Origin: Chamaelirium japonicum
Taxonomy: Eukaryota; Streptophyta; Magnoliopsida; Liliales; Melanthiaceae
Assembly: GCA_947650365.1 (NCBI GenBank)
Contig: OX393553.1
Location: 38,047,947-38,111,946 of the forward strand
DNA length: 64,000 nucleotides
Direction: 5' to 3'
Positions 43,845-64,000 of the stretch are shown here, one piece after another; position 1 is the stretch's first letter, and each line of letters opens with the position of its first letter. The notes under the pieces are model-generated. The model worked only from the letters and a program-made list of their open reading frames with translations. It did no database searches and had not been told where the DNA came from. The position numbers and the translations under genes were made by a program.

Positions 43845-44500
43845 ACTTACCGGTAACTGCAATCTCGTCGTGGGTCAGCCACGCGCGAAGAGGAGAAGAA
43901 AGCGAATTTACCGGTAGCCGCAATCTCGTTACGGGTCAGCCACGCGCGAAGAGGAGAAAAAGAGCACACTTTGCGTCCCGAAGAAGCAAGCGAACTTACC
44001 AGGAGCCGCAATCTCGTTGCGGGTAGGCCGCGCATTAAAACGAAGTAGGGGGGGTCCAAGCTCCCCCCTAGGCCAGCCGCACACTATAATTAGGAGAAGA
44101 GGGAATCCAACTCCCCCTCTCCCAGGGGGTCGACCGTGTATTATAATTAGGAGGGGGGAGTCAAACTCCCCCCTGGTCGACCACGCACTATAATTGGGAG
44201 AGGGGGGGGGAGTCAAACTCCCCCCTGGTCAGCCATGCACTATAATTGGGAAAGGGGGGAGTCAAACTCCCCCCCTGGTCGGCCACGCACTAAGCAAGGA
44301 GAGGGGGGGAGTCCAAGTTCCCCCCCCAAGGAGGGTTGGTCGCGTACTATACCCAGGAGGAGGGGGAGTCCAAACTCCCCCCATGATGGCCGGCCGCGCA
44401 CTAAAATAAAGAGAGGGGGACTGCCCCTCCTTTTGGTTGTCAGTCGGGCACGAAAGTGAGGAGGGAGCCCCCTCTGTCTGATGATCGGCGGCACACAAAG
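43845..44500 (+). repeat. Two tandem arrays in the U3 of LTR 2
   Basis: Three copies of about 70 bp (CGAACTTACCGGTAACTGCA... and CAGCCACGCGCGAAGAGGAG) at about 43845-44030 are followed by about seven units of 55-60 bp. These pair GGTCGGCCACGCACTATAA with GGGAGTCAAACTCCCCCC, each containing a small GGGGGAGT/ACTCCCCC-type palindrome. Open frames on both strands are by-products. Confidence 0.8.
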
Positions 44501-47990: not shown

Positions 47991-49439
47991 GGATAATGAG
48001 GTAAAAACACCTTGAGTTTATTCTCGCTTATGCAGTTATTTTTTTAGCATCCAATGCAGTTAAACAATCTTTGGTTTTAATCTGGACAGGACCACTTGCC
48101 TGGGATGAAAGGAAACTTGGATTATGAAGGGTCTCTACTGTCTTTTGTTGGGGTTGTTATCAGTGCCATCAAATTGTTTTTAGGTAGACTAAATAAAATT
48201 AATTATTGACCTATTTGGTATATAGTGAGTTCCCATAAATCTTGGGCAAGCATATAAGATAATCTGATAGCTTGTATTGCTGATACTGATAATCTTCACT
48301 TTGTTGCATTGTAGCTCTCTCTCAGATCCAAATTTCTTCAAACATTTTCAGTAGTGGGAAGTCAAATTGTCCCTCAAAGAATGTTGATGCATATTTATAT
48401 ACTGTTCCTGAAGTTCATATGAAGAAAAACCACACGGGTACTTTATCTGCATTTGTTTAGCTACTTTGTTTAATTTTTCTATGAATGTTTTAGTTTGATT
48501 TAGCAGAATGGCTCTTTCCATAAACAATAAACTGTTGAAGAGTCAACGATCAATCTGCAAAACACGAAATGCCCCAACCAATGTCTCGTCTTATATCAGA
48601 TGACATCTTTTTATTTCCCTTGCTATTTTTCCCTTAACTCTTTGACTGCACATAGGCTGACTTGTATACATCATTACCTTATTATGTTTGTATTTTCAAT
48701 AGTGTCTAATCATTCTTTGTATCTTGTACGATCACAAATCTTCTCTATTCTACAACTTCGTATCTAGTTCTACTTCAAATGAGTTTACTGTACGTACATT
48801 ACATCATACAAGCTGTAATTTATGTTTTGAATTGTGTGAGAACAACATGATACATCATCTGTATCTTCATATTGTAAATAGTATCTTAAACATGATGTTA
48901 TTGTAGGCAATTGTGAGGATGGAGCATCTGGTACAGATGTATCTTGGTTAGTATCTAACACATAATACATTAATTTATAATATAATGCAATTCTTTAAGT
49001 CAATTCTTATTATTAGAAAATAACTTAACTACTTCATGGAAAACTAATTGTTATTCTTTCCTTTTTTTATATAGATGGACGATTGACTTTATTGGCCTGC
49101 GAACGGATAATATTAGCCATCAGTTTCTACCATTTTATTTGGCATTTTAAAAAAGATGCGACATTATCTTTAAAGATATTTTTTTTTGTAGTCCTTCAGT
49201 TGATGTATGGATGTTGGTTTTATGTTACTGATCCTTAATAGAAATGAGTATGGATAAACATATGTACTTAGAAGAATAATTTAGTTTTTTTATTTGACAT
49301 TAATTGAGTTTAAATAAATACTTAGGTACTTTTATTTTCAATGAAATGTGTATTTATGAATGCATATGTATACATATTTCAAGAAAAAAAATTTAATATT
49401 TAACAAAATAATATTAAGAATTTGACTTTTAGTGGCACA
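47991..49439. other. AT-rich intergenic sequence, no gene seen
   Basis: Stops in every frame, and no domain or long repeat was recognised. Confidence 0.45.
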
Positions 49440-49948
49440 TGTAATAATTACGTCACTGAATGTGTATATTTTGTGGCCCAATAACTACATCTCCTAATGT
49501 ATACATTTGGCTTAATGGTTAAATTCAACGATACAATTATTATATCGCTAAATATATACATTATACGATGCCAAAGTATACATTCTACGACACTATTATT
49601 TGTTTGCTAGAAGTTATTGGCGACGCTATTATATACGTTGCCAAATATTTTTACTTTTGGCGATGCATATGGTGCGTCGCTAAATGTTCTATATATAAGC
49701 TTAATTTAGTTGTTTTTGCAACGCGAGAGATCATTTCAGTGATGTTTTTTGTTTCAATTGGCGACGCTTATTGCGTCACGATTGGTAAACCTTTCAGTGA
49801 CGCACTTTGATCGCGTCGCCGAAAGTATTCTCAGACGGGGAATAGGCGACGTCTTGGCGACGCAATTTGAAGCATCGCAAAATATATTTCGCAAAGAATA
49901 TAACCGTGATGCTCTAATATGTCACAGAATATGTCTTTTCTTGTAGTG
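49440..49948. mobile_element. CACTA-type element end
   Basis: The sequence ends TTTTCTTGTAGTG at 49948, the inverse of the CACTACAAGAAAA terminus of plant CACTA transposons. The preceding 300 bases carry the GCGACGC/GCGTCGC-type subterminal words usual for this superfamily (for example GGCGACGCTTATTGCGTC). I found no matching left CACTACAAGAAAA end, so it may be truncated. The satellite array starts at the next base. Confidence 0.65.
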
Positions 49949-52900
49949 ATTTTTAGGAGGCAATGATGAGGCTCTTAGAGGGTGTTTTTGGAAGGAATGC
50001 TCGATTGCATATAATTTACTTAAGGTTATCGGGTTGGGGTTCAAAAGATTATGGAAACAGTTTTAGGAAGCAATTTTGGCTCCTCAAATATAGGGAAGTA
50101 CTTAGTGAGGATCCTGGTGGGTGTCTTGGGGAGGAGTGCATAATTTGAGTATAATTTAATTATCCTTATCGTGTGGGGGTCCTGAGAAATTAGGGAGCGA
50201 TTTTGGCTCCCCAAATATAAGGAGTTTTGTAGAAATCCCAAAATAGGGAGGCATATGATGATAATTTTAAAGGGTGTTTAGGAAAGAAGTGCTCGATTTA
50301 TATATAATTCATTTTAGGTTATTAGGTGGGTGTCCTAAGAAAATAGGGAGCGATTTTGGTACCCCAATTGTAGAACTTCAGGTAGTGATCTTAAAAATAG
50401 GAAAGCACATTGTAAGTCCCTTGGAAGATGTTTTGGGAATGGTATTTGATTTGTATATAATTTAGTTATGATTGATGGGTAGGGATCCTAAGAAAATAGG
50501 GAACCATTTTGGCACTCTAAATATAAGGAATCTGGTAGCTATCCGAAAAATATAGAGACACATTATGAGGCACTTGGAGGTTGTTTTTGGGTTGACTGCT
50601 CAATTTGTAAATTATTTTACTTACGGTTGTTGGGTAGGGGTCCTGAAAAAATAGAGATCGACTTTGGCTACCCAAATATAAGGAGTCTGGTACCAATCCT
50701 AAAAATATGGAGACACGTGGTGAGGATCTTGAAGGTTATTTTGAAAAGAAGTACTCAATCTGTATATAATTTACTTATGGTTATCGTGTGAGTGTCCTAA
50801 AAAAAAAAAGGAAGAGATATTGGTTCCCCAAATATAAGAATTCTGGTAGTGATATTAAAATAGGTTGGCATATATCGAGCCTTTTTGTAGGGTATTTTGA
50901 GGAGGAGTGCTCAATTTTTATATAATTTACTTTTGATTATCGGGTGGGAGGACCTAAGAAAGTAGGTAAGTATATGATGAGACTCTTTGAGGGTGTTTAT
51001 GGAAGTAGTATTCAATTTGTATATAATTTAGTTATGATTGTCGGGTGGGAGCCTTGAGAAATTAGAAGTAATTTTGGCTCACAAAATATAAGGAGACTAG
51101 TAGCGATCCCAAAAATAAGGAGGTAATGACGAGGCTCTTTAAGGGTATTTTTGGGAGGAATGCTCGATTGTATATAAATTAATTATAGTTATCGGGTGGG
51201 GGTTCAAAAAAAATATTGAGCTATTTTGGCTCCCTAAATTTAGGAAGTCTAGTAGCAATTCTAAAACTAAAGAACATATTGCGAGGTTCTTAGAGGGTGT
51301 TTTAGGGAGGAGTGCTCGATTGTATATAATTTACTTAAGGTTGTCTTGTGGGGATTCAAAAAAAATATTGAGCGGTTTTGGCTCTTTAAATTTAGGGAGT
51401 CTAGTAGCAATCCTAAAAATAGAGAGGCATATTGTGAGGCTCATTAAGGGTGTTTTAGGACGGAATGCTTGATTCATATATAATTTATTTATGATTTTAG
51501 GTTATTTTTGGGAGGCAATATCGAGGCTCTTAGAGGGTGTTTTTGGGTGGAATGCTTGATTGTATATAATTTACTTAAGGTTATCAGGTGGGGATTCAAA
51601 AAAAATAGGGAGCAGTTTTGGCTCCCTAAATATAGGGAGTGTAGTAGCAATCCCAAAAATAGAAAGCATATTGCAAGGCTCTTAGTGGGTGTTTTAGAAA
51701 GGAGTTCTCGATTTTATATAATTTACTTAAGGTTATTGGGTGGGGGTTCAAAAAAAATATTGAGTAGTTTTGGCTTCCTAAATATAGGGAGTCTAGTAGC
51801 AATCTCAGAAATTAAGAGGCATATTGCGAGGCTTTTAGAGGGTGTTTTAGGAAGGAGTACTTGATTTATATATAATTTAATTATGATTTTAGGGTGTTTT
51901 TGGGAGGTAATAGAGAGGCTCTTAGAGGGTATTTTTAGGAGGAATGCTCGATTGTATATAATTTACTTATGTTTGTCAGATGGGAGTTCAAAAAAAATAT
52001 GGACGCAGTTTTAGGAAGTGATTTTGGCTACCCAAAGATAGGGAAGCACTTAGTGAGGATCCTGGTGGGTGTTTTGGGGAGGAGTACATAATTTGTATAT
52101 AGTTTACTTATACATATCGGGTGGGGGTCCTGAGAAATTAGGGAGCAATTTTGTCTCCCCAAATATAAGGAGTTTGGTAGAAATCCCAAAAAATGGAGGC
52201 ATATGATGATCCTTTTGAAGGGTATTTAGGTTAGGAGTGCTCGATTTATATATAATTTCTTTTAGGTTATCAGGTGGGGGTTCTAAGAAAATAGGGAGTG
52301 ATTTTGGCACCCCAATTGTAGAAAGTCTAGTAACGATCTTAAAAATAGGAAAGCACATTGCAAGTCCCTTGGAATATGTTTTGGGGAGGATGTTTGATTT
52401 GTGTATAATTTACTTATGATTGACGGGTAGGGATCTTAAGAAAATAGGGAACCATTTTGGCATTCCAATTGTAGGGAGTCTAGTATCTATCCTAAAAATA
52501 GGGAGGTACATTACAAAGCTCTTGGAGGGTGTTTTAGGAATGACTGCATGATTTGTAAATTATTTTACTTACAATTGTTAGGTGGGGGTCCTAAAAAAAT
52601 AGAAATCAATTTTGACTACCCAAATATAAGAGTCTGGTAACGATCCCAAAAATAGAAAGACACGTAGTGAGGATTTTAAAGGTTATTTTGGTAAAGAGTA
52701 TTCTATTTGTATATAATTTACTTATAGTTGTCATGTGAGTATCCAAAAAAAATTGGATGATATTTTGGTTCCCCAAATATAAGAAGTTTGGTAGTGATAT
52801 TAAAATAGGTTGGCACATATCGAGCCTCTTTGTAGGGTATTTTGAGGAGGAATGCTTGATTTATATATAATTTACTTTTGATTCTCGGGTGTGGGGTCCT

Positions 52901-54108
52901 AAGAAAATAAGGAAGCAAATGACGAGACTCTTGGAAGGTGTTTATGGAAGCAGTGCTCAATTTGTATATAATTTAGTTAAGATTATTAAGTGGGAGCCTT
53001 AAGAAGTTGGGAGTGATATTGGCTCCCCAAATATAGGGAGTCTAGTAACGATCCCAAAAATAAGAAGGCAATGACGAGGCTCTTAGAGGGTGTTTTTGGG
53101 AGGAATGCTCGATTGTATATAATTTAATTAAGGTTATTGGGTGGGGTTTAAAAAAAACTATGGAGCAGTTTTGGCTCCCTAAATATGGGGAGTCTAGTAG
53201 TAATCCCGAAAATAGTAAACATATTGCTAGGCTTTTAGAGGGTGTTTTAAGGAGGAGTGCTCGATTGTATATAATTTACTTAAGGTTGTCGGGTGGGGTT
53301 CATAAAAAATATAGAGCGACTGTAGCTCCCTAATTATAGGGAGTCTAGTAGAAATCCCAAAAATATAGAGAATATTACGAGGCTCTTAGAGGGTTTTTAA
53401 GGAGGAGTGCTCGATTATATATAACTTACTTAAGGTTGTCGGGTGGGGTTTCAATAAAAATATAGAGCTGTTTTGGCTCCCAAAATATTTAGAGTCTAGT
53501 AGCAATGACAAAAATAGATAGGCATATTGCGAGTCTCTTAGAGGGTATTTTAGGAAGGAGTGCTTGATTTATATATCATTTACTTATGATTTTACGGTAT
53601 TTTTGGGAGGCAATGGCAATGCTCATAGAGAGTGTTTTTGGGAGGAATGCTCGATTGTATATAATTTACTTAAGGTTGTTGGGTGGGGGTTCAAAAAAAA
53701 TATGGAAGTGGTTTTATAGAGCGATTTTGCTCCCCAAGTATAGGAAAGCACTTACTGAGAATCCTGGTGGGTGTTTTGGGAAGGAGTCCATAATTTGTAT
53801 ATAATTTACTTATACTTATCGGGTGGGGGTCCTAAGAAATTATAGAGCGGTTTTGGCTCTCCAAATATTAGGAGTTTGGTAGAAATCCCAAAATAAGGAG
53901 GCATTTGATGAGTCTTTTGAAGGGTGTTTAGGAGAGGACTGCTCGATTTATATATAATTTATTTTAGGTTGTCAGGTTGGGGGCTTGAAAAAATAGGGAG
54001 CAGTTTTGGCGTCCAAATTGTAGAAAGTCTGGTAGCGATATTAAAAATAAAAAAGCACATTGCAAATCACCTAGAGGATATTTTGGGGAGGATATTTGAT
54101 TTGTGTAT
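49949..54108 (+). repeat. Higher-order satellite array, left block
   Basis: Tandem monomers of about 152 bp, with shorter variants of about 88-100 bp. Each contains a (T)GTATATAATTTACTTA box, a poly-A run after GGGTGGGGGTTC, and TTGGCTCCCTAAATATAGGG. Monomers fall into recognisable types that recur in the same order, giving a higher-order unit. The type starting GATCCTGGTGGGTGTTTTGG occurs at 50110, 52058 and 53760, and the type with GTGAGTGTCCTAAAAA near 50788 and 52735. The block is cut at 54108 by a solo LTR. Short plus-strand open frames here are satellite by-products. Confidence 0.93.
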
Positions 54109-54616
54109 TGTAACATCCCCAAAAATATTAATGATTTAATATAATTTAAAACTATATAATAAGAATTTTTGATACAAAATTTAAAATAAAAATCGGACGG
54201 TGCCATTGCGTCCGTCTCGTCGAAACGATTAAAAACCATATATAAACTTTTCCGTTTTGAACTCATTTAAAGCATTAAAAAATTAAAAGAAAAAGGCTAT
54301 ATACATATGTAAACATAAATAGCCAATAGAAAGATTCGAACCCAAGACCCATTTAATAAAATTTTAAATCAGTTCCTCTAACCAAAAATCCCTTAAATCT
54401 TTTCTATTTAATTAAAGTAAAACAAATTATTATTCTATAACTAGGAATACCAAGCGTCATCTGACCGTTCGATCACAATCGAACGGCCAGAATACGAAAC
54501 GACACATAGAATACGAATCGTCATCTGCGACCGTTCGTTTCCAAATCGGACGGCCAGAATACGAAACGACAGATTTGCAATAAAGCCCCCGGGACTCTTC
54601 GTATTCCCGGGGAGCC

Positions 54617-54624
54617 TATATAAA
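54617..54624 (+). promoter_or_regulatory. TATA box of the solo LTR
   Basis: CCTATATAAACCCC in GC-rich surroundings, about 510 bases into the LTR. It marks the likely U3/R boundary and the plus orientation. Confidence 0.65.
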
Positions 54625-55642
54625 CCCCCCCCCTCCCACAAACACCTGCACAACAGTCCTCGCGACCAAGCGGGTCCCACCACCCACCGACCACACTCAG
54701 CCGCCGCCGCCACCGGTCGCCGCCTGCTGGCCGCCGGTCGCCGCCGCCGGCCACCCCACTGTCGACCACCGCCGCCGGTCACCGCCGCCGGCCGCCGCCG
54801 GCCACCACCGCCGGTCACCGCCGCCGGCCGTCGCCGGCCGCAGCCCACCACCGCCGCCGGCCGGCCACCGGTCGCCGCCGCCGCCGCCACCACCGGCCGC
54901 CACCCGGGTTGTTGGGTCGGGTATGTGATTTGAACCCATTAACCCATTTAATTTGGGTTTAAATCCATTTATAAAATAGTGATGCAAAAAGGCCATATTT
55001 GATTTAGAACCCACAACCTCTTCCAAACCTATTCTAAAGCCCTTTAGACTAACCAATAGATCCATTTACATCTTATGTTTATAAATCACCTATAATTAAA
55101 TATATAGATTATCTATGAAAACTATATTGACCTTATCTTACCCATACGGACTCGGAATTGAGTTCCGTCAGTGGCGTTGGATTCGTAATGACAAAATACA
55201 CTTACTTAGATTATAAAATTCCACAACCGACAAATAAAAAGTATATTTACCATTTTACCCCTAGGGTAAAATGGTCATAACCTCTTCATTCTAACTCAGA
55301 ATCGAATTCCGTCTGCGGCCACGGGTTCCTAATAAAAAGCTCTACAAAATGAATATAAATTTAAAATATTTTGGAATTGATCAAAATGCCCCTAAAGGAG
55401 AAAACCCATTAGTTCACATCGAAAGATATTGGAAAAATCCTGGAAAATTTAGGATAAAAACTAACCAATTATTAGTAACATATTTTCAGGTTTTGAGCAT
55501 ACTAAAGCTTCCTTATCAGGAGTAAGAGTTTGCAACGGTTCAGGTAGGGGATTTAAACTCAGTTTATTCATGCTAATTATATACTATAGAATGTCGGTAA
55601 TTTGATATGGAATGGTAAATTTTGAAATACGTAATCACTTAT

Positions 55643-55851
55643 GTGGGTGTGGGGCTAGCCCTGGCTGAGGCCAAAAAGTACCTGGGTGTGGGGCTATCCC
55701 TGGCTTGCGAGCCTAAAAGATAAATCCTGGGTGTGGGGCTGTCCCTGGCTGCGGGCCTAAAAGATAAATCCTGGGTGTGGGGCTGTCCCTGGCTGCGGGC
55801 CAAAAAGATAATCCTAGGTGTGGGGCTAGCCTTGTTGCGGACTAAAAGTAC
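55643..55851 (+). repeat. About 44-bp tandem repeat in the solo LTR, five copies
   Basis: Units begin TGGGTGTGGGGCT and contain GTCCCTGGCTGCGGGCC and AAAGATAAATCC, at 55643, 55682, 55727, 55771 and 55814. Confidence 0.9.
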
Positions 55852-56342
55852 CCGGGTAAGGATTGAGATTCCTACCCTGGCCGGATGAGCCAAAAAGGGA
55901 ATCGGGTGATTAATGTTTTAATTATTTACTTTTCATAGTCATATTTACTGCTTTCAATACATATTATTTAGCATGAGCAAAACTGAGTCATTGGTGAGTC
56001 AGTGGATAGAACTCACCCCCCTACAGATGATGTGCACCCTACAGAGACAAACCCTGCAGTACCCGGAGAAGATGAGGAGCGATCAGGATGCGACCCAGAA
56101 GGAATTGAAGACCTACTCTACACTCCTTTCTATGACGACGACGGAGCTGGATTATGATGTGACAATGTGGAAAGTCTTAGTTTTAGGCTTTTGATTTTAA
56201 TAAATTGTATGAAACAATGATGTTTTAATAGATTGGCTCAGTAATTTCCATATTTGATGGATTTTAGTTATATCAAGTTTTTATTCCTAACACCCCAGTA
56301 TTATACGGGTTGAATTAATCCGTAAAATATCGGGGCGTTACA

Positions 56343-59300
56343 TGTATAATTTACTTATGATTGACGGGTAGGGATCCTAAGTAAATAGGGAATCATTTTG
56401 GCACTTCGAATATAGAGAGCCTGGTAGCTATCCTAAAAATATGGCGGTACATTATGAGGCTTTTGGATGGTATTTTAGGGATGATTGCTCAATTTGTAAA
56501 TTATTTTACTTATGGTTGTTTGGTGGGGGTTCTGAAAAAATAGAGATCGATTTTGGCTAACCAAATATAAGGAGTCGGGTAATGATCCCAAAAATAAGGA
56601 AACACATGGTAATGATCTTGAATGTTATTTTAGGAAGGAGTACTCGATTTATATATAAATTACTTATGGTTTTTGGGTGAGTGTCCTAAAAAAAATAAGA
56701 AGCGATTTTGGTTTCCCAAATATAAGGAGTCTTGTAGCGATATTAAAATAGGTTAATATATATTATGTCTTTTTATAGATTATTTTAAGGAGGAGTGCTT
56801 GATTTGTATATAATTTACTTTTGATTATCGGGTGGGGAGTCATAAGAAAGTAGGAAAGCACATGACAAGACTCTTGGAGGGTGTTTATAGAAGGAGTGCT
56901 TGATTTGTATATAATTTAGTTAGGATTATCGGGTGGGAGTCTTGAGAAATTAGGAGTGATTTTGGCTCCCCAAGTATAGGGAGTCTAGTAGCAATCCTAA
57001 AAATTAGAAGGCAATGGCAAAGCTCTTAGAGGGTGTTTTTGGAAAGAATGCTCGATTGTATATAATTTACTTAAGGTTATTAGGTGGGGGTTCAATAAAA
57101 ATATGGAACTTTTTTGGCTATATAAATATATAATGTCTAGTAGTAATCCAAAAAATAGATAGCATATTGCGAGGCTCTTAGAGAGTGTTTTAAAGAGGAC
57201 TGCTCAATTGTATATAATTTACTTAAGGTTATCGGGTGGGGGTTGAAAAAAAAATATGGAGGGATTTTAGCTTCCTAAATATAGGGAGTCTAGTAGGAAT
57301 TTCAAAAATAAAGAGGCATATTGCGAGGCTCTTAAAGGGTATTTTAGAGAAGAGTACTTGATTTATATATAATTTTCTTATGATTTTAGGATGTTTTTGA
57401 GAGGCAATGGTGAGGCTCTTAGAGGGTGTTTTTGGGAAAAATGCTTATTTGTATATAATTTACTTAATGTTATCGGGTGGGGATTCAAAAAAAATATAGA
57501 GCTATTTTGGCTCCCTAAATATAGGGTGTCTAGTAGCAATCCCAAAAATAGAGAGCATATTGTGAGGCTCTTCGAGGGTGTTTTAGGGAGGAGTGCTTGA
57601 TTGTATATAATTTACTTTTGATTTTATAGTGTTTTTAGGAGGTAATGGTGAGGCTCTTAGAGGGTGTTTTTGGGAGGAATGCTTGTTTGTATATAATTTG
57701 CTTAAGGTTATCGGGTGGGCAATCACAAAAAAATATAGAGCTATTTTGGCTCCCTAAATATAGGGTGTCTAGTAGCAATCCCAAAAACAGAGAGCATATT
57801 GCGAGGCTCTTGGAGGGTGTTTTAGGAAGGAGTGCTTGATTGTATATAATTTACTTAAGGTTGATTGGTGGGGGTTCAAAAAAAATATGGAGCAGTTCTG
57901 GCACCCTAAATATCTAGAGTTTAGTAGCAATCCCAAAAATAGAGTGGCTTATTGCGAGGCTCTTAGAGGGTGTTTTAGGGAGGAGTGATTGATTTATATA
58001 TAATTTACTTATGATTTTTGGGTATTTTTGGGAGGCAATGGCGAGGCTCTTAGAGGATGTTTTTGGGAGGAATACTCGATTATATATAATTTACTTAAGG
58101 TTGTCGTGTTGGGGTTCAAAAAAAATATGTAAGCAATTTTAGGGTATGATTTTGGGTCCTTATATATAAGGAAGCACTTAGTTAGGATCCTGATGGGTGT
58201 TTTGGGGAGGAGTGCATATTTTGTATATAATTTACTTATACTTATCGAGTGGGGGTCCTAATAAATTAGGGAGTGATTTTGGTTCCCCAAATATAAGGAG
58301 TTTAGTAGAAATCCAAAACATAGGGAGGCATATGATGAGGCTTTTGAAGGGTGCTTAGGAGAGGAGTGCTTGATTTATATATAATTTATTTTAGGTTGTC
58401 AGGTAATGGTCCTGAGAAAATAGGGAGCAATTTTAGAGCCCTAATTGTTGAAAGTCTAGTAGCAATCTTAAAAATAGGAATGCACATTGCAAGTCCCTTA
58501 GAGGATATTTTGGGGAGGATGTTTGATTCATGTATAATTTACTTATGATTGATGGGTAGTGATCCTAAGAATATACGGACCATTTTGGCACTCCAAATAT
58601 AGGGAGTCTGGTAGCTATCCTAAAAATATAAAGGTACATTACGAGGCTCTTGGAGTGTGTTTTAGTGATGACTGCTCCATTTGTAAATTATTTTACTTAT
58701 GGTTATTGGGTGAGGGTTCTGAAAAAATAGAGATCGAGTTTGGCTACCCAAATATAAGGAGTCTGGTAACAATCCTAAAAATATAGAGACATGTGGTGAA
58801 GATCTTGAAGGTTATTTTGGAAAGGAGTGCTCAATTTGTATATAATATACTTATGGTTATTGTGTGAGTGTCCTAAAAAAATAGGAAGCGATTTTGGTTC
58901 CCCAAATATAAGTAGTCTAGTAGTGATATTAAAATAGGTTAGCACATATTGAGCCTCTTTGTAGGGTATTTTGAGGAGGAGTGCTCAATTTTTATATAAT
59001 TTACTTTTGATTGTCGGGTGGGGAGTACTAAAAAAGCACGAAAGCACATGATAAGACTCTTGGAGGGTGTTTATGGAATAAGTGCTCGATTTTAATATAA
59101 TTTAGTTATGATTATCGGGTGGAAGCCTTGAGAAATTGGGAGCGATTTTGGCTCTCCAAATATAGAGAGTCTTGTAGCGATCCCAAAAATAAAGAGGCAA
59201 AGGCAAAGCTCTTGGTGGGTATTTTTGGGAGGAATGCTCGATTGTATATTATTTACTTAAGGTTGTTGGATGGGGGTTCAAAAAAAATATAGAGCAGTTT

Positions 59301-62300
59301 TGGCTCCCTAAATATAGGAAGTCTAGTAGCAATCCCAAAAATAGAGACCGTATTGTGAGGCTCTTAGAGGGTGTTTTAGGGAGGAGTGCTCAATTGTATA
59401 TAATTTACTTAAGCTTGTCGGGTGGGGGTTAAAAAAAAAATAGAGCGGTTTTGGCTCCCTAAATATATAGAGTCTAGTAGCAATCCTAGAAATAGAGACG
59501 AATATTGCGAGGCTCTTAGAGGGTGTTTTAGAGAGGAGTGCTTGATTTATATTTAATTTATTTATGATTTTAAGGTGTTTTTGGGAGGCAATGGCGAGGA
59601 TTTTAGAGGGTGTTTTTGGGAGGAATGCTCGATTATATATAATTTATTTAAGGCTGTCGGGTGGGGGTTCAAAAAAAATATGGTGCGGTTTTGGCTCCCT
59701 AAATATAGGGAGTCTAGTTGCAATCCCAAAAATAGAGAGCATATTGCGAGGCTCTTAGAGGGTGTTTTAGGGAGGAGTGCTCGATTGTATATAATTTACT
59801 TAAGGATTTCGGCTGGGGTTTAAGAAAAATATAGAGCAATTTAGGCTCCCTAAATATAGGGAATCTAGTAGGAATCCAAAATATAGAGAGCCATAGTGCG
59901 AGGATTTTAGAGGGTGTTTTAGAGAGGAGTTCTTGATTTATATATAATTTACTTATGATTTTAGGGTGTTTTTGGGAGGCAATGGTGAGGCTCTTAGAGG
60001 GTGTTTTTGGAAAGAATGCTTGATTGTATATAATTTACTTAAGGTTGTCGGGTGGGGGTTCAAAAAAAATATAGAATCAATTTTACAGAGCGATTTTGGC
60101 TCCCTAAATATAGGAAAGCACTTAGTGAGGATCATGGTGGGTGTTTTGGGGAGGAATACATAATTTGTATATAATTTACTTATACTTATCGGGTGGGGGT
60201 CCTGAGAAATTAGGGAGCGATTTTGGCTCTTCAAATATAAGGAGTTTAGTTGAAATCCTAAAATAAGTAGGCATATGATTAGGCTTTTAAAGGGTGTTTA
60301 GTAGAGCAGTGCTCGATTTATATATAATTTATTTTAGGTTGTCAGGTGGGGGTCCTGAGAAAATAGGGAGCGATTTTAGCTCTCCAATTGTAGAAAGTCT
60401 GATAGTGATCTTAAAAATAGGGAAGCACATTGCAAGTCCCTTGGAGGATATTTTGGGGAGGATGCTTTATTTGTGTATAATTTACTTATGATTGACGAGT
60501 AGGGATCCTGAGAAAATAGGGAACCATTTTGGCACTCCAAATGTAGGGAGTCTGGTAGCTATTATAAAAATATGGAGGCACATTACGAGGCTCTTGGATG
60601 GTGTTTTAGGGATGACTCCACGATTTATAAATTATTTTACTTACAATTGTTGGGTGGGGTTCTTGAAAAGTAGGGAGACACGTGGTGAGGATCTTGAAAG
60701 TTATTTTGAGGAGTGCTCAATTTGTATATAATTTACTTATAGTTGTCGTGTGAGTGTCCTAAAAAAATAGGAGTGCTCAATTTGTATATAAGGGGTCTGG
60801 TAGCGATATTAAAATAGGTTGTCACATATCGGGCCTCTTTGTAGTTTATTTTGGGGAAGAGTGCTCGATTTGTATATAATTTACTTTTTATTGTTGGGTG
60901 GAGGGCCCTATGAAAGTAGGAAAGCACATTACCAGACTCTTGGAGGGTATTTATGGAAGGAGTGTTCGATTTATATATAATTTAGTTATAATTATCGGGT
61001 GGGAGCCTTGAAAAATTGGGAGCTATTTTGGCTCCCCAAATAAAGGGAGTCTAGTAGCGATCCCAAAAATAAGGAGGCAATGACAAGGCTTTTAGAGGGT
61101 GTTTTTGGGAGGAAAGCTCGATTGTATATAATTTACTTAAGGTTGTCGGGTGGGGGTTTAAAAAAAACATGGAGCGGTTTTGGCTCCCTATATATAGGGA
61201 GCCTAGTAGGAATCCCAAAATTTTATAGCATATTACGAGGCTTTTAGAGGGTGTTTTAGGGAGGAGTGCTTGATTTATATATAGTTTACTTATGATTTTA
61301 GGGTGCTTTTGGGTGGCAATGGCGAGGCAATTAGAGGTGTTTTTGGGAGGAATGCTTGATTGTATATAATTTACTTAAGGTTGTCGGGTGGGGGTTCAGA
61401 AAAAATATGGAAGCAGTTTTAGAGAACGATTTTGGCTGCCCAAATATAAGGAGTATTGTAATGATCCCAAAAGTAGGGAGACATGTGGTGAGGATCTTGA
61501 TGGTTATTTAGGGAAGGAGTGGTCAATTTGCATATAATTACTTATGGTTGTCATGTGAGTATCCTAAAAAAATAAGAAGTGATTATTATTCCCCAAATAT
61601 AAGGAGTCTGGTAGCGATATTAAAATAGGTTGGCATATATCTAGCCTCTTTGTAGTGTATTTGAGGAGGAGTGCTCGATTTGTATATAATTTATATTTGA
61701 TTATCGGATGGGGGGTCCTAAGAATATAGGGAAGCACATGACGAGACTATTAGAGGGTGTTTATGGAAGGAGTGCTCGATTTGTATATAATTTAGTTATA
61801 ATTATTGGGTGGGAGCCTTGAGAAATTGGGAGCGATTTTGGCTCCCCAAATATAAGGAGTCTAGTAGAGATACCAAAAAATAAGGTGGCAATGGCAAAGC
61901 TCTTAGAGGGTGTTTTTAGGAGGAATGCTTGATAGTATATAATTTACTTAAGGTATACGGGTAGGGGTTCAAAAAAAAAATGGAGCGGTTTTGGCTCCCA
62001 AAAAATAGGGAGTCTAGTAACAATCCTAAAAATAGAGAGCATATTACTAGGCTCTTAGAGGGTCTTTTAGGGAGGAGTGCTCGATTGTATATAATTTACT
62101 TAAGGTTGTCGGGTGGGGGTTTAAAAAAAATATGGAGCGGTTTTTGCTCCCTAAATATAGGGAGTCTAATAGCAAGCCCAAAAACAGAGAGGTATATTGC
62201 GAGGCTCTTAGACGGTGTTTTAGAGAGAAGTGCTTGATTTATATATATATATATATAATTTAATTATGATTTTATGGTGTTTTTAGAAGGTAATGGCGTG

Positions 62301-64000
62301 GCTCTTAGAGGGTGTTTTTGGGAGGAATGCTCGATTGTGTATAATTTACTTAAGATTGTTGGGTGGGGGTTCAAACAAAATATAGAGCAGTTTTGGCTTC
62401 CTAAATATAGGGAGTCTTGTAGCAATCCTAAAAAATGGAGAGCATAATGCGAGGCTCTTAGAGAGTGTTTTAGGGAGGAGTGCCCGATTGTATATAATTT
62501 ACTTAAGGTTATCGAGTAGGGGTTCAAAAAAAATATGGAGAGGTTTTGGCTCCCTAAATATAGGTAGTCTAGTAGCAATTCTAAAAATAGAGATGCATAT
62601 TACAAGACTCTTAGAGGGTGTTTTAGGGAGGAGTGCTTGATTTATATATAGTTTACTTATTATTTTATGTTGTTCTTGGGAGGCAATGGCGAGGCTCTTA
62701 GAGGGTGTTTTTGGGAGGAATGCTCGATTATATATAATTTACTTAAGGTTATCGGGTGGGGGTTTAAGAAAAATATGGAGCGTGTTTGGCTCCCTAAATA
62801 TAGGGAGTCTAGTAGCAATCCCAAAAATAGAGAGCATATTGCTAGGCTCTTAGAGGGTATTTTAGGAAGGAGTGCACGATTGTATATAATTTAGTTATGA
62901 TTATCGGGTGGGAGCCTTGAGAAAATGGGAGCGATTTATGCTCCCCAAATATAAGGAGTCTAGTAGCGATGCCAAAAATAAGGAGGCAATGGTGAGGCTT
63001 TTATAGGGTGTTTTTGGGAGGAATGGTCAATAGTATATTATTTACTTAAGGTTGACGGGTGGTGGTTCAAAAAAAATATGAAGCCATTTTGCTCCCTAAA
63101 TATAGAGAGTCTAGTAGCAATCCAAAAAATAGAGAGCATATTGCGATGCTCTTAGAGGATATTTTAGGGAGGAGTGCTCGATTGTATATAATTTACTTAA
63201 GGTTGTCGCATGGGCGTTCAAAAAATATATAGAGTGGTTTTGGCTACCTAAAAATAAGGAGTGTAGTAGCAATCTCAAAAATAGAAAGGCATATTGCGAG
63301 GCTTTTAGGGGGTGTTTTAGGGAGGTTTTTTGATTTATATATAATTTACGTATGATTTTATGGTGTTTTTAGGAGGCAATGGCGAGGCTATTAGAGGGTA
63401 TTTTTGGGAGGAATACTCGATTATATATAATTACTTAAGGTTATCGGTTTGGGGTTTAAAAAAATATAGAGCAGTTTTGGCTCCATAAATATAGGAAGTA
63501 TAGTAGCAATCCAAAAAATAGAGAGCATATTGCGATATTCTTAGAGGGTGTTTTAGGGGAAAAGTGCTTGATTATATATAATTCACTTAGGGTTGTCGGG
63601 TGGGGGTTCAAAAAAAATATGGAGCGATTCTGGCTCCCTAAATATAGGGAGTCTAGTAGCAATCCCAAAAATAGAGAGAATATAGTGAGGCTCTTAGAGG
63701 TTATTTTAAGGAGGAGTGCTCGATTGTATATAATTTACTTAAGATTGTTGGGTGGGGGTTTAAAAAAAATATGGAGTGATTTTGGCTCCCTAAATATAGG
63801 AAGTCTAGTAGCAGTCCCAAAAATAGATAGCATACGGCGAGGCTAATAGATGGTATTTTTGGGAGGAATGCTCGATTGTATAAAATTTACTTAAGGCTGT
63901 CGGGTGGGGATTCAAAAAAAATATGGAGCAATTCTTGCTCCCTAAATATATTGAGTCTAGTAGCAATCCCAAAAATAGAGAGTATATTGTGAGGATCTTA
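56343..64000 (+). repeat. Higher-order satellite array, right block (runs off the window)
   Basis: Continuation of the same monomers. The first monomer is the right half of the one cut by the LTR. Marker types recur: GATCCTGATGGGTG near 58186, GATCATGGTGGGTG near 60130, and GTGAGTGTCC near 56669, 58864, 60750 and (ATCC variant) 61554. From about 60690 on, the order of types shows skips, and from 62950 the array is mostly one monomer type plus its short partner. No interruption by other elements is seen. The array continues past the right edge. Confidence 0.93.

What the first reader, a model, noticed from the sequence alone, without database searches (positions are those of the whole stretch)
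49949..64000. Satellite with multi-monomer higher-order repeat of about 1.7-2.2 kb
Nucleosome-sized monomers (about 152 bp) fall into at least nine distinguishable types whose order repeats: several common monomers, a short 88-bp type, then a fixed run of seven specialised types. Marker words recur at 50110, 52058, 53760, 58186 and 60130; after subtracting the solo LTR the spacings are about 1948, 1702, 2187 and 1944 bp. Variation in period comes from differing numbers of the common monomer. Higher-order repeats are known mainly from centromeric satellites. Here one sits within 15 kb of a zinc-finger gene and inside transposon-rich DNA.
Basis: seen in the sequence. Interest (0 to 1): 0.82.

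Follow-up and report, generated by a model that had tools for sequence, protein, structure and literature searches.

The report
Frozen plant satellite with higher-order repeats
A plant chromosome carries a long block of repeated DNA whose roughly 150-base units follow a fixed order of about ten types, and the copies sampled on three chromosomes look as if they were all made at about the same time and have drifted apart separately ever since.

Summary
The higher-order repeat (HOR) is real. The array (49949-64000) reads ABCDEFGH + (c,c,t)n: eight specialised monomers, then common (152 bp) and truncated (86 bp) ones. There are five full or near-full units and a recombinant sixth. Labels from position-blind clustering recur in order, outside 5,000 shuffles at each of four cut-offs.

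The window lies in a held 1.52-Gb plant genome (C5:38.05-38.11 Mb). The array spans about 150 kb: HORs at both edges, a c/t core, and disordered, more diverged monomers beyond the right edge. Marker counts extrapolate to about 52,000 common monomers and 365 HOR units genome-wide.

The surprise is the age structure. HOR units are 86% identical within an array and 86% between chromosomes. Common-monomer identity is flat at about 0.84, from neighbours to 200 kb, and the same between chromosomes. The tree of 22 units is a star. An inverted duplicate of the array edge, 3.7 Mb away, matches position for position at 97.4% and lacks the solo LTR, so these copies have not been homogenised since.

Best reading: a relic satellite whose copies date from one episode (burst or last homogenisation), now decaying by G:C>A:T change. 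The active-centromere hint is not supported. CENH3 was not testable; the species was not identified.

The parts
49949..64000 (+). Satellite array, monomer about 152 bp, HOR ABCDEFGH + (c,c,t)n; continues beyond the window to about window position 65111 and, after interruptions, to C5:38247261
50008..51954 (+). HOR unit 1: ABCDEFGHcctcct
51955..53657 (+). HOR unit 2: ABCDEFGHccct
53658..58082 (+). HOR unit 3: ABCDEFGHcctctcct, split in D by the solo LTR
58083..60026 (+). HOR unit 4: ABCDEFGHcctcct
60027..61362 (+). HOR unit 5: ABCDeFGHct, E shortened to 96 bp
61363..62882 (+). HOR unit 6, recombinant: a 168-bp monomer that begins like A and resembles E, then FGHcctcctc (B, C and D missing)
62883..64000 (+). 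H, then common and truncated monomers, start of the c/t core
54109..56342 (.). Solo LTR, 2234 bp, starts TGTAACA and ends GTTACA, target-site copies TGTAT at 54104-54108 and 56343-56347; absent from the inverted duplicate (unfilled site at C5:34375347)
49640..49948 (.). Right end of a CACTA-like transposon abutting the array: 12 bases equal to the CACTA-type end (recalled motif) at 49937-49948, with GCGACGC-like subterminal repeats; no left end with at most one mismatch in the window

Best explanation
This is a plant satellite family with a nested HOR, built from 152-bp monomers. Shown: the ordered unit A-H plus a variable number of c,c,t; its recurrence on C3 and C5; and the absence of any gradient of similarity with distance or chromosome in the samples. 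Inferred: the copies seen today arose within a short time from near-identical templates. Either one replicative burst with spread to many sites made them (for example rolling-circle copies of circular satellite DNA put back into the chromosomes), or one thorough genome-wide homogenisation ended at that time. Homogenisation then practically stopped, and each copy has decayed on its own, mostly by G>A and C>T change as expected of methylated heterochromatin. The array now looks like a relic with no sign of being under selection or of being an active centromere core.
For: (1) The 22 intact ABCDEFGH blocks taken from C5 (3 left edge, 6 right edge) and C3 (13) have mean identities of 0.861, 0.858 and 0.863 within groups and 0.856-0.861 between groups. 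(2) IQ-TREE: 0 of 19 inner branches supported at its starred level, 16 drawn open, printed inner lengths 0.0015-0.0074 against a median end branch of 0.087 (bootstrap not settled). (3) Spread of pairwise differences: sd 0.0101 against 0.0095 with columns shuffled (86 of 300 shuffles reach it); coefficient of variation 0.071 against at least 0.339 in 200 Kingman trees; the spectrum of non-majority bases (392, 259, 150, 102, 60 ...) follows a star with gamma rates (385, 252, 165, 106, 68 ...) and not the neutral folded spectrum. (4) 477 common monomers of C5: mean identity 0.839 at 0-200 bp, 0.839-0.840 out to 60 kb, 0.846 at 60-200 kb; 0.848 to 94 of C3 (150 of the 477 used); 34 of C2: 0.836 among themselves, 0.838 to C5. 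(5) Natural control: the inverted duplicate at C5:34.37-34.38 Mb is 97.4% identical position by position (window 49439-54108 and 56343-61684), while the same stretch matches neighbouring units at about 84-87%. (6) Changes against the type consensus: C>T 154 of 1256 and G>A 316 of 3172 sites, highest at CG; other changes at most 0.039 per site.
Against: The gamma shape used for the star expectation (0.99) was fitted to the same 22 sequences. A burst and the sudden end of thorough homogenisation leave the same star. Duplication has not stopped altogether: 20 of 477 C5 common monomers have a partner above 0.95 identity, at three offsets (about 1124, 2706 and 8773 bp); the inverted duplicate exists; and contigs C42 and C259 hold near-equal array pieces. 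The core is not younger than the HOR edges (c to c 0.837 against 0.854 and 0.858), so it gives no layering of ages inside. Substitution rates differ between columns beyond base identity (for G sd 0.096 against a binomial 0.016); I did not separate sequence context from constraint. Blocks that were interrupted or had one mislabelled monomer were dropped before the count of 22. Only parts of three chromosomes were read, and long homogeneous arrays may be collapsed or missing in this assembly.
Confidence: 0.72

Rival explanations
1. The array is, or borders, a working centromere, and the HOR reflects ongoing homogenisation there, as in human alpha satellite.
For: Nucleosome-sized monomer, real HOR, abundant family (34,624 c-marker hits), position at 38 Mb of a 93-Mb chromosome, disordered more diverged monomers outside the HOR at one end on C5 and on C3.
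Against: Neighbouring HOR units differ by 13-16% and are no more alike than units on another chromosome; A-marker places on C5 alone lie at 16.8, 33.7, 34.3-34.4, 38.1-38.2 and 53.4 Mb (100 of 227 listed); a transposon end, a solo LTR and two further interruptions cut the array. One CENP-B-box-like match (recalled consensus) in 264 kb, no chance level computed, and plants need none.
Confidence: 0.1
2. No burst: the family was old, gene conversion and unequal exchange kept it uniform genome-wide, and that homogenisation stopped everywhere at once (for example on loss of centromere function or a switch of chromatin state).
For: Gives the same star and needs no explosive spread; recombinant unit 6 and truncated t and G show that exchange and deletion did work at some time.
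Against: It requires a uniform exchange between many loci on different chromosomes and a simultaneous stop. Inside the array, types A-H kept 17-28% differences while copies of each were uniform, which is more easily made by amplifying a finished unit.
Confidence: 0.3
3. The tandem array is internal sequence of a transposon (for example CACTA or Helitron) that spread it.
For: A CACTA-like end abuts the array at 49948, and arrays lie at many sites.
Against: The array lies outside the element's end, spans about 150 kb, and no transposon ends or reading frames frame it; the longest stop-free run in the array parts tested is 128 codons.
Confidence: 0.05
4. Assembly or base-calling noise makes copies look equally divergent.
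For: Assembly of 3253 contigs, quality unknown.
Against: The duplicate is 97.4% identical over two stretches of about 4.7 and 5.3 kb, so errors cannot supply 14%; the changes are mostly G>A and C>T.
Confidence: 0.02

Closest known systems
Switchgrass (Panicum virgatum) centromere repeat HORs with truncated monomers (PMC4053949, passages seen)
   Same: A plant HOR made of several full monomers plus a truncated one: 792 bp (four monomers plus one about half-size) and 1,131 bp (six 175-bp monomers plus 53 bp)
   Different: Those are described as homogeneous arrays; here the unit is 1.7-2.2 kb, has eight distinct types plus c and t, variable length, and about 14% divergence between units with no local homogenisation
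Human alpha-satellite HOR arrays with flanking monomeric layers (recalled; listings only)
   Same: Ordered monomer types, with disordered, more diverged monomers outside the ordered zone
   Different: Human HOR units are nearly identical within an array (recalled); here they are not, and the core between the HOR edges is made of the simple c,c,t repeat and is not younger
Chenopodium satellite family CficCl-61-40: concerted, HOR-forming and non-concerted evolution (PMC6429384, passages seen)
   Same: A plant satellite with little homogenisation (C. vulvaria) and HOR formation in relatives
   Different: There low homogenisation goes with multidirectional variation seen in short reads; here the HOR order is intact and all sampled copies are equidistant
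VaccSat3 of Vaccinium, monomers 152-154 bp (PMC7290377, one passage seen)
   Same: Monomer length
Circular extrachromosomal DNA from plant satellites (PMC2543021, passages seen)
   Same: A proposed route for amplifying monomer or HOR multiples from one template
   Different: A mechanism, not a sequence family; its authors did not see rolling-circle intermediates, and nothing here tests it directly

Membership tests
Satellite DNA | Long head-to-tail arrays of a repeated non-coding unit, abundant in the genome | tested here: met
   927 monomer hits in about 150 kb; 34,624 c-marker hits genome-wide, 0 for the backward control; no long reading frame
Higher-order repeat | Monomer types in a recurring order; same-type copies more alike than neighbours | tested here: met
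   same order on C3
Homogenised (live) HOR array | Neighbouring HOR units near-identical and more alike than units elsewhere | tested here: not met
   0.84-0.87 between units in the window; within-array equals between-chromosome; flat with distance
Functional plant centromere satellite | CENH3 nucleosomes on the repeat | not testable with these tools
   no chromatin data
Functional plant centromere satellite | One main cluster per chromosome | tested here: inconclusive
   several places per chromosome for the A marker and for the c marker on C2, but only the first 100 places of each search are listed
Layered-expansion array | More diverged monomers outside, younger repeats inside | tested here: inconclusive
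   outer zone more diverged (0.755 mean pairwise), but the core is not younger than the HOR edges
Transposon-internal tandem repeat | Array framed by transposon ends | tested here: not met
   only one CACTA-like end, outside the array; about 150 kb of array

The most novel reading that the evidence does not exclude
The family, about 10 Mb by extrapolation, was laid down across the chromosomes in one short saltatory episode, HOR order included, and then entered recombinational silence: tens of thousands of tandem copies that started the same clock together, a replicated record of neutral mutation in plant heterochromatin.
Probability: 0.4. Interest if true: 0.68.

Novelty: new variant of a known kind. 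Interest (0 to 1): 0.5.

Why it matters
Satellites are expected to be kept uniform by local exchange, so neighbours should be most alike. Here similarity does not depend on distance or chromosome in the samples taken, while a complex monomer order survives. That separates two questions usually mixed together: how a HOR is made, and how it is kept uniform. It also offers a ready test of burst against gradual origin, since sister species that split after the episode should share HOR units position by position, and it gives many independent copies from one starting sequence for measuring mutation by sequence context in heterochromatin.

Tried and rejected
Centromere reading: see rivals. Transposon-internal repeat: rejected. 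Coding function: the longest stop-free run in the array parts tested is 128 codons.

Layered expansion with a young core: expected after seeing HORs at both edges, not borne out by divergence. HOR-to-outer junction shared between C5 and C3: both leave the HOR after a final cctcct, but C5 goes on into another A and the sequences then differ, so no shared breakpoint was shown. First and last c of the c,c,t group as separate types: not separable (0.850-0.854 within, 0.847-0.850 between).

Strand bias: GC skew is 0.37-0.44 in array-dominated bins, but C>T and G>A run at similar rates per site (0.123 and 0.100), so the skew looks inherited from the founding sequence and not ongoing.

Print and other collections: six 20-24-base words of the monomer in the full text of the held papers: none. 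'152 bp' with satellite terms: 3 papers, one relevant by length only. '152-bp' with assembly terms: none. 'star-like' and 'saltatory' searches: none. One 22-base word in viral contigs: none. Species: a test through a protease family was asked twice and not answered; I did not go on, so the plant is unnamed and whether this satellite is already described for it is open.
Full report
What is there. The stretch 49949-64000 is a one-strand tandem array of monomers of about 152 bp. Cut at a shared anchor it gives 84 monomers with ten recognisable types: A (140-141 bp), B-F (mostly 152-156 bp), G (101 bp), H (151-152 bp), the common c (about 152 bp) and a truncated t (86 bp). Five units start with A at 50008, 51955, 53658, 58083 and 60027; a sixth is recombinant, starting with a 168-bp monomer that begins like A and resembles E and then going on with F, G and H. 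The end of t matches the end of H, so t looks like an H that lost about 66 bp (read from the consensus sequences; inference).

Is it more than chance. With monomers clustered without use of position, the entropy of the next label is 0.60-1.05 bits at four cut-offs, against shuffled means of 2.03-2.23 and lowest values of 1.74-1.92 in 5,000 shuffles each. Same-type identity is 0.84-0.88; identity between the eight specialised types is 0.72-0.83. The order recurs on another chromosome (C3).

Setting. The window is G000:C5:38047947-38111946 of a 1.52-Gb genome in 3253 contigs. It is a plant by a copia-type Gag (PF14223, E 7.7e-8), a QALGGH zinc finger (weak Pfam match, below the curated cut-off; motif recalled) and a CACTA-type end (recalled). 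The species was not identified. On C5 the array spans 38097885-38247261 in four stretches of 4.2, 8.8, 3.8 and 110.7 kb, with 927 monomer hits. Read by type it has an HOR zone at the left, a core of c, t and scattered H, an HOR zone at the right (about 38.210-38.2345 Mb) and an outer zone to 38.2473 Mb whose monomers fit no type (mean identity to the best type 0.767, margin over the second 0.012). The C3 stretch 9.185-9.235 Mb is HOR throughout, with the same kind of outer monomers at the same end.

How much of it there is. A 24-base word of type A has 227 matches with up to two mismatches, a 25-base word of c has 34,624, and the backward controls have none. In the C5 and C3 stretches 23 A-word hits stand for 37 A monomers and 399 c-word hits for 602 c monomers. 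That extrapolates to about 365 HOR units and 52,000 c monomers, and with the t share to about 9.6 Mb, 0.6% of the genome. The listed A words lie on C3-C11 and on contigs C42, C140 and C259 (100 of 227 listed); the listed c words on C1-C3 (100 listed).

The age structure. The 22 intact ABCDEFGH blocks (9 from C5, 13 from C3; interrupted or mislabelled blocks dropped) have mean identities of 0.858-0.863 within the left edge of C5, the right edge of C5 and C3, and 0.856-0.861 between them. Their tree has no supported inner branch (0 of 19 starred) and end branches of median 0.087. Pairwise differences vary no more than when columns are shuffled (sd 0.0101 against 0.0095; 86 of 300 shuffles reach it), far less than in coalescent trees, and the base-count spectrum follows a star (its gamma shape comes from the same data). 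For 477 common monomers of C5 (labelled c, 145-160 bp, over 0.8 identity to the consensus), mean identity is 0.839 for neighbours, 0.839-0.840 out to 60 kb, 0.846 beyond, and 0.848 to C3. For C2 it is 0.836 within and 0.838 to C5. In the first genome search, the 42 matches after the window itself and the 97% duplicate, from C3 to C11 and three contigs, are 85-89% identical to window 50000-51000; these are the best of 6091 candidates, of which 40 were scored.

A natural control. The left edge of the array, with its CACTA-like flank, has an inverted duplicate at C5:34.37-34.38 Mb. Window 48499-52500 matches at 97.5%; window 49439-54108 and 56343-61684 match at 97.4% in one continuous stretch that lacks the solo LTR and holds one unbroken copy of its target site (C5:34375347). 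Each HOR unit is thus closest to its counterpart 3.7 Mb away and about 84-87% identical to its neighbours. Since that duplication these units were not homogenised, and the solo LTR came later. The zinc-finger gene is not in the duplicate: its only full match is itself, the next best 74% on C3.

How it decays. Against the type consensus, C>T affects 154 of 1256 sites and G>A 316 of 3172, with CG sites highest (0.26 and 0.15) and CHG and CHH sites at 0.09-0.18; other changes are at most 0.039 per site (type E left out). In 571 common monomers no column has lost its consensus base as the majority, and no G or C column is free of change (lowest 6%); column rates vary more than base identity explains.

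Mechanism. Shown: order, star, no gradient, positional identity in the duplicate. Inferred: one episode made or levelled the copies, after which exchange was rare (three local duplications seen among 477 monomers). Circular satellite DNA copied by rolling circle is a plausible maker, since plants form such circles in multiples of monomer or HOR length (PMC2543021, passages), but the end of a genome-wide homogenisation leaves the same pattern. I put 0.72 on the relic reading as a whole.

Known and new. HORs with truncated monomers are known from switchgrass (PMC4053949, passages), and low homogenisation from Chenopodium vulvaria (PMC6429384, passages). What I did not find, in the searches named under Tried and rejected, is a complex plant HOR whose copies are equidistant within and between chromosomes.

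Noticed in passing
window 48499-61684 and C5:34.37-34.38 Mb (L002, L007, L034): Inverted duplicate of the array edge and its flank, 97.4% identical, without the solo LTR and without the zinc-finger gene; its full extent was not mapped.
   Followed up: partly
C42:1823943 and 1881196, C259:268476 (L003-L005): Array pieces with near-equal scores and the same marker variants, 57 kb apart on one contig and on another: recent duplication or haplotype copies.
   Followed up: no
C5:34254395-34275135 and C5:53383484-53405768: In the marker list these two places, 19 Mb apart, share several rare marker variants at similar spacing, as if another array piece had been duplicated.
   Followed up: no
C5 array, offsets of about 1124, 2706 and 8773 bp: 20 of 477 common monomers have a partner over 0.95 identical, at only three offsets: rare recent local duplications.
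   Followed up: partly
window 50001-54000 and 56001-64000: Strong GC skew (0.37-0.44) over the array, with C near 10% on the + strand.
   Followed up: partly
C5:38234900-38247261 (L021, L022): Outer zone: monomers fit no type and differ by about 25% on average, yet each has a neighbour-like partner at 0.86 on average, so the zone may hold a repeat order of its own.
   Followed up: partly
window 44149-44325: 52-bp tandem repeat, 2.8-3.4 copies, in GC-rich retrotransposon-like DNA.
   Followed up: no
c monomer, consensus positions about 61-77: The common monomer holds the inverted repeat CTCCCTA-AATA-TAGGGAG, imperfect in most specialised types (read from the consensus sequences).
   Followed up: no
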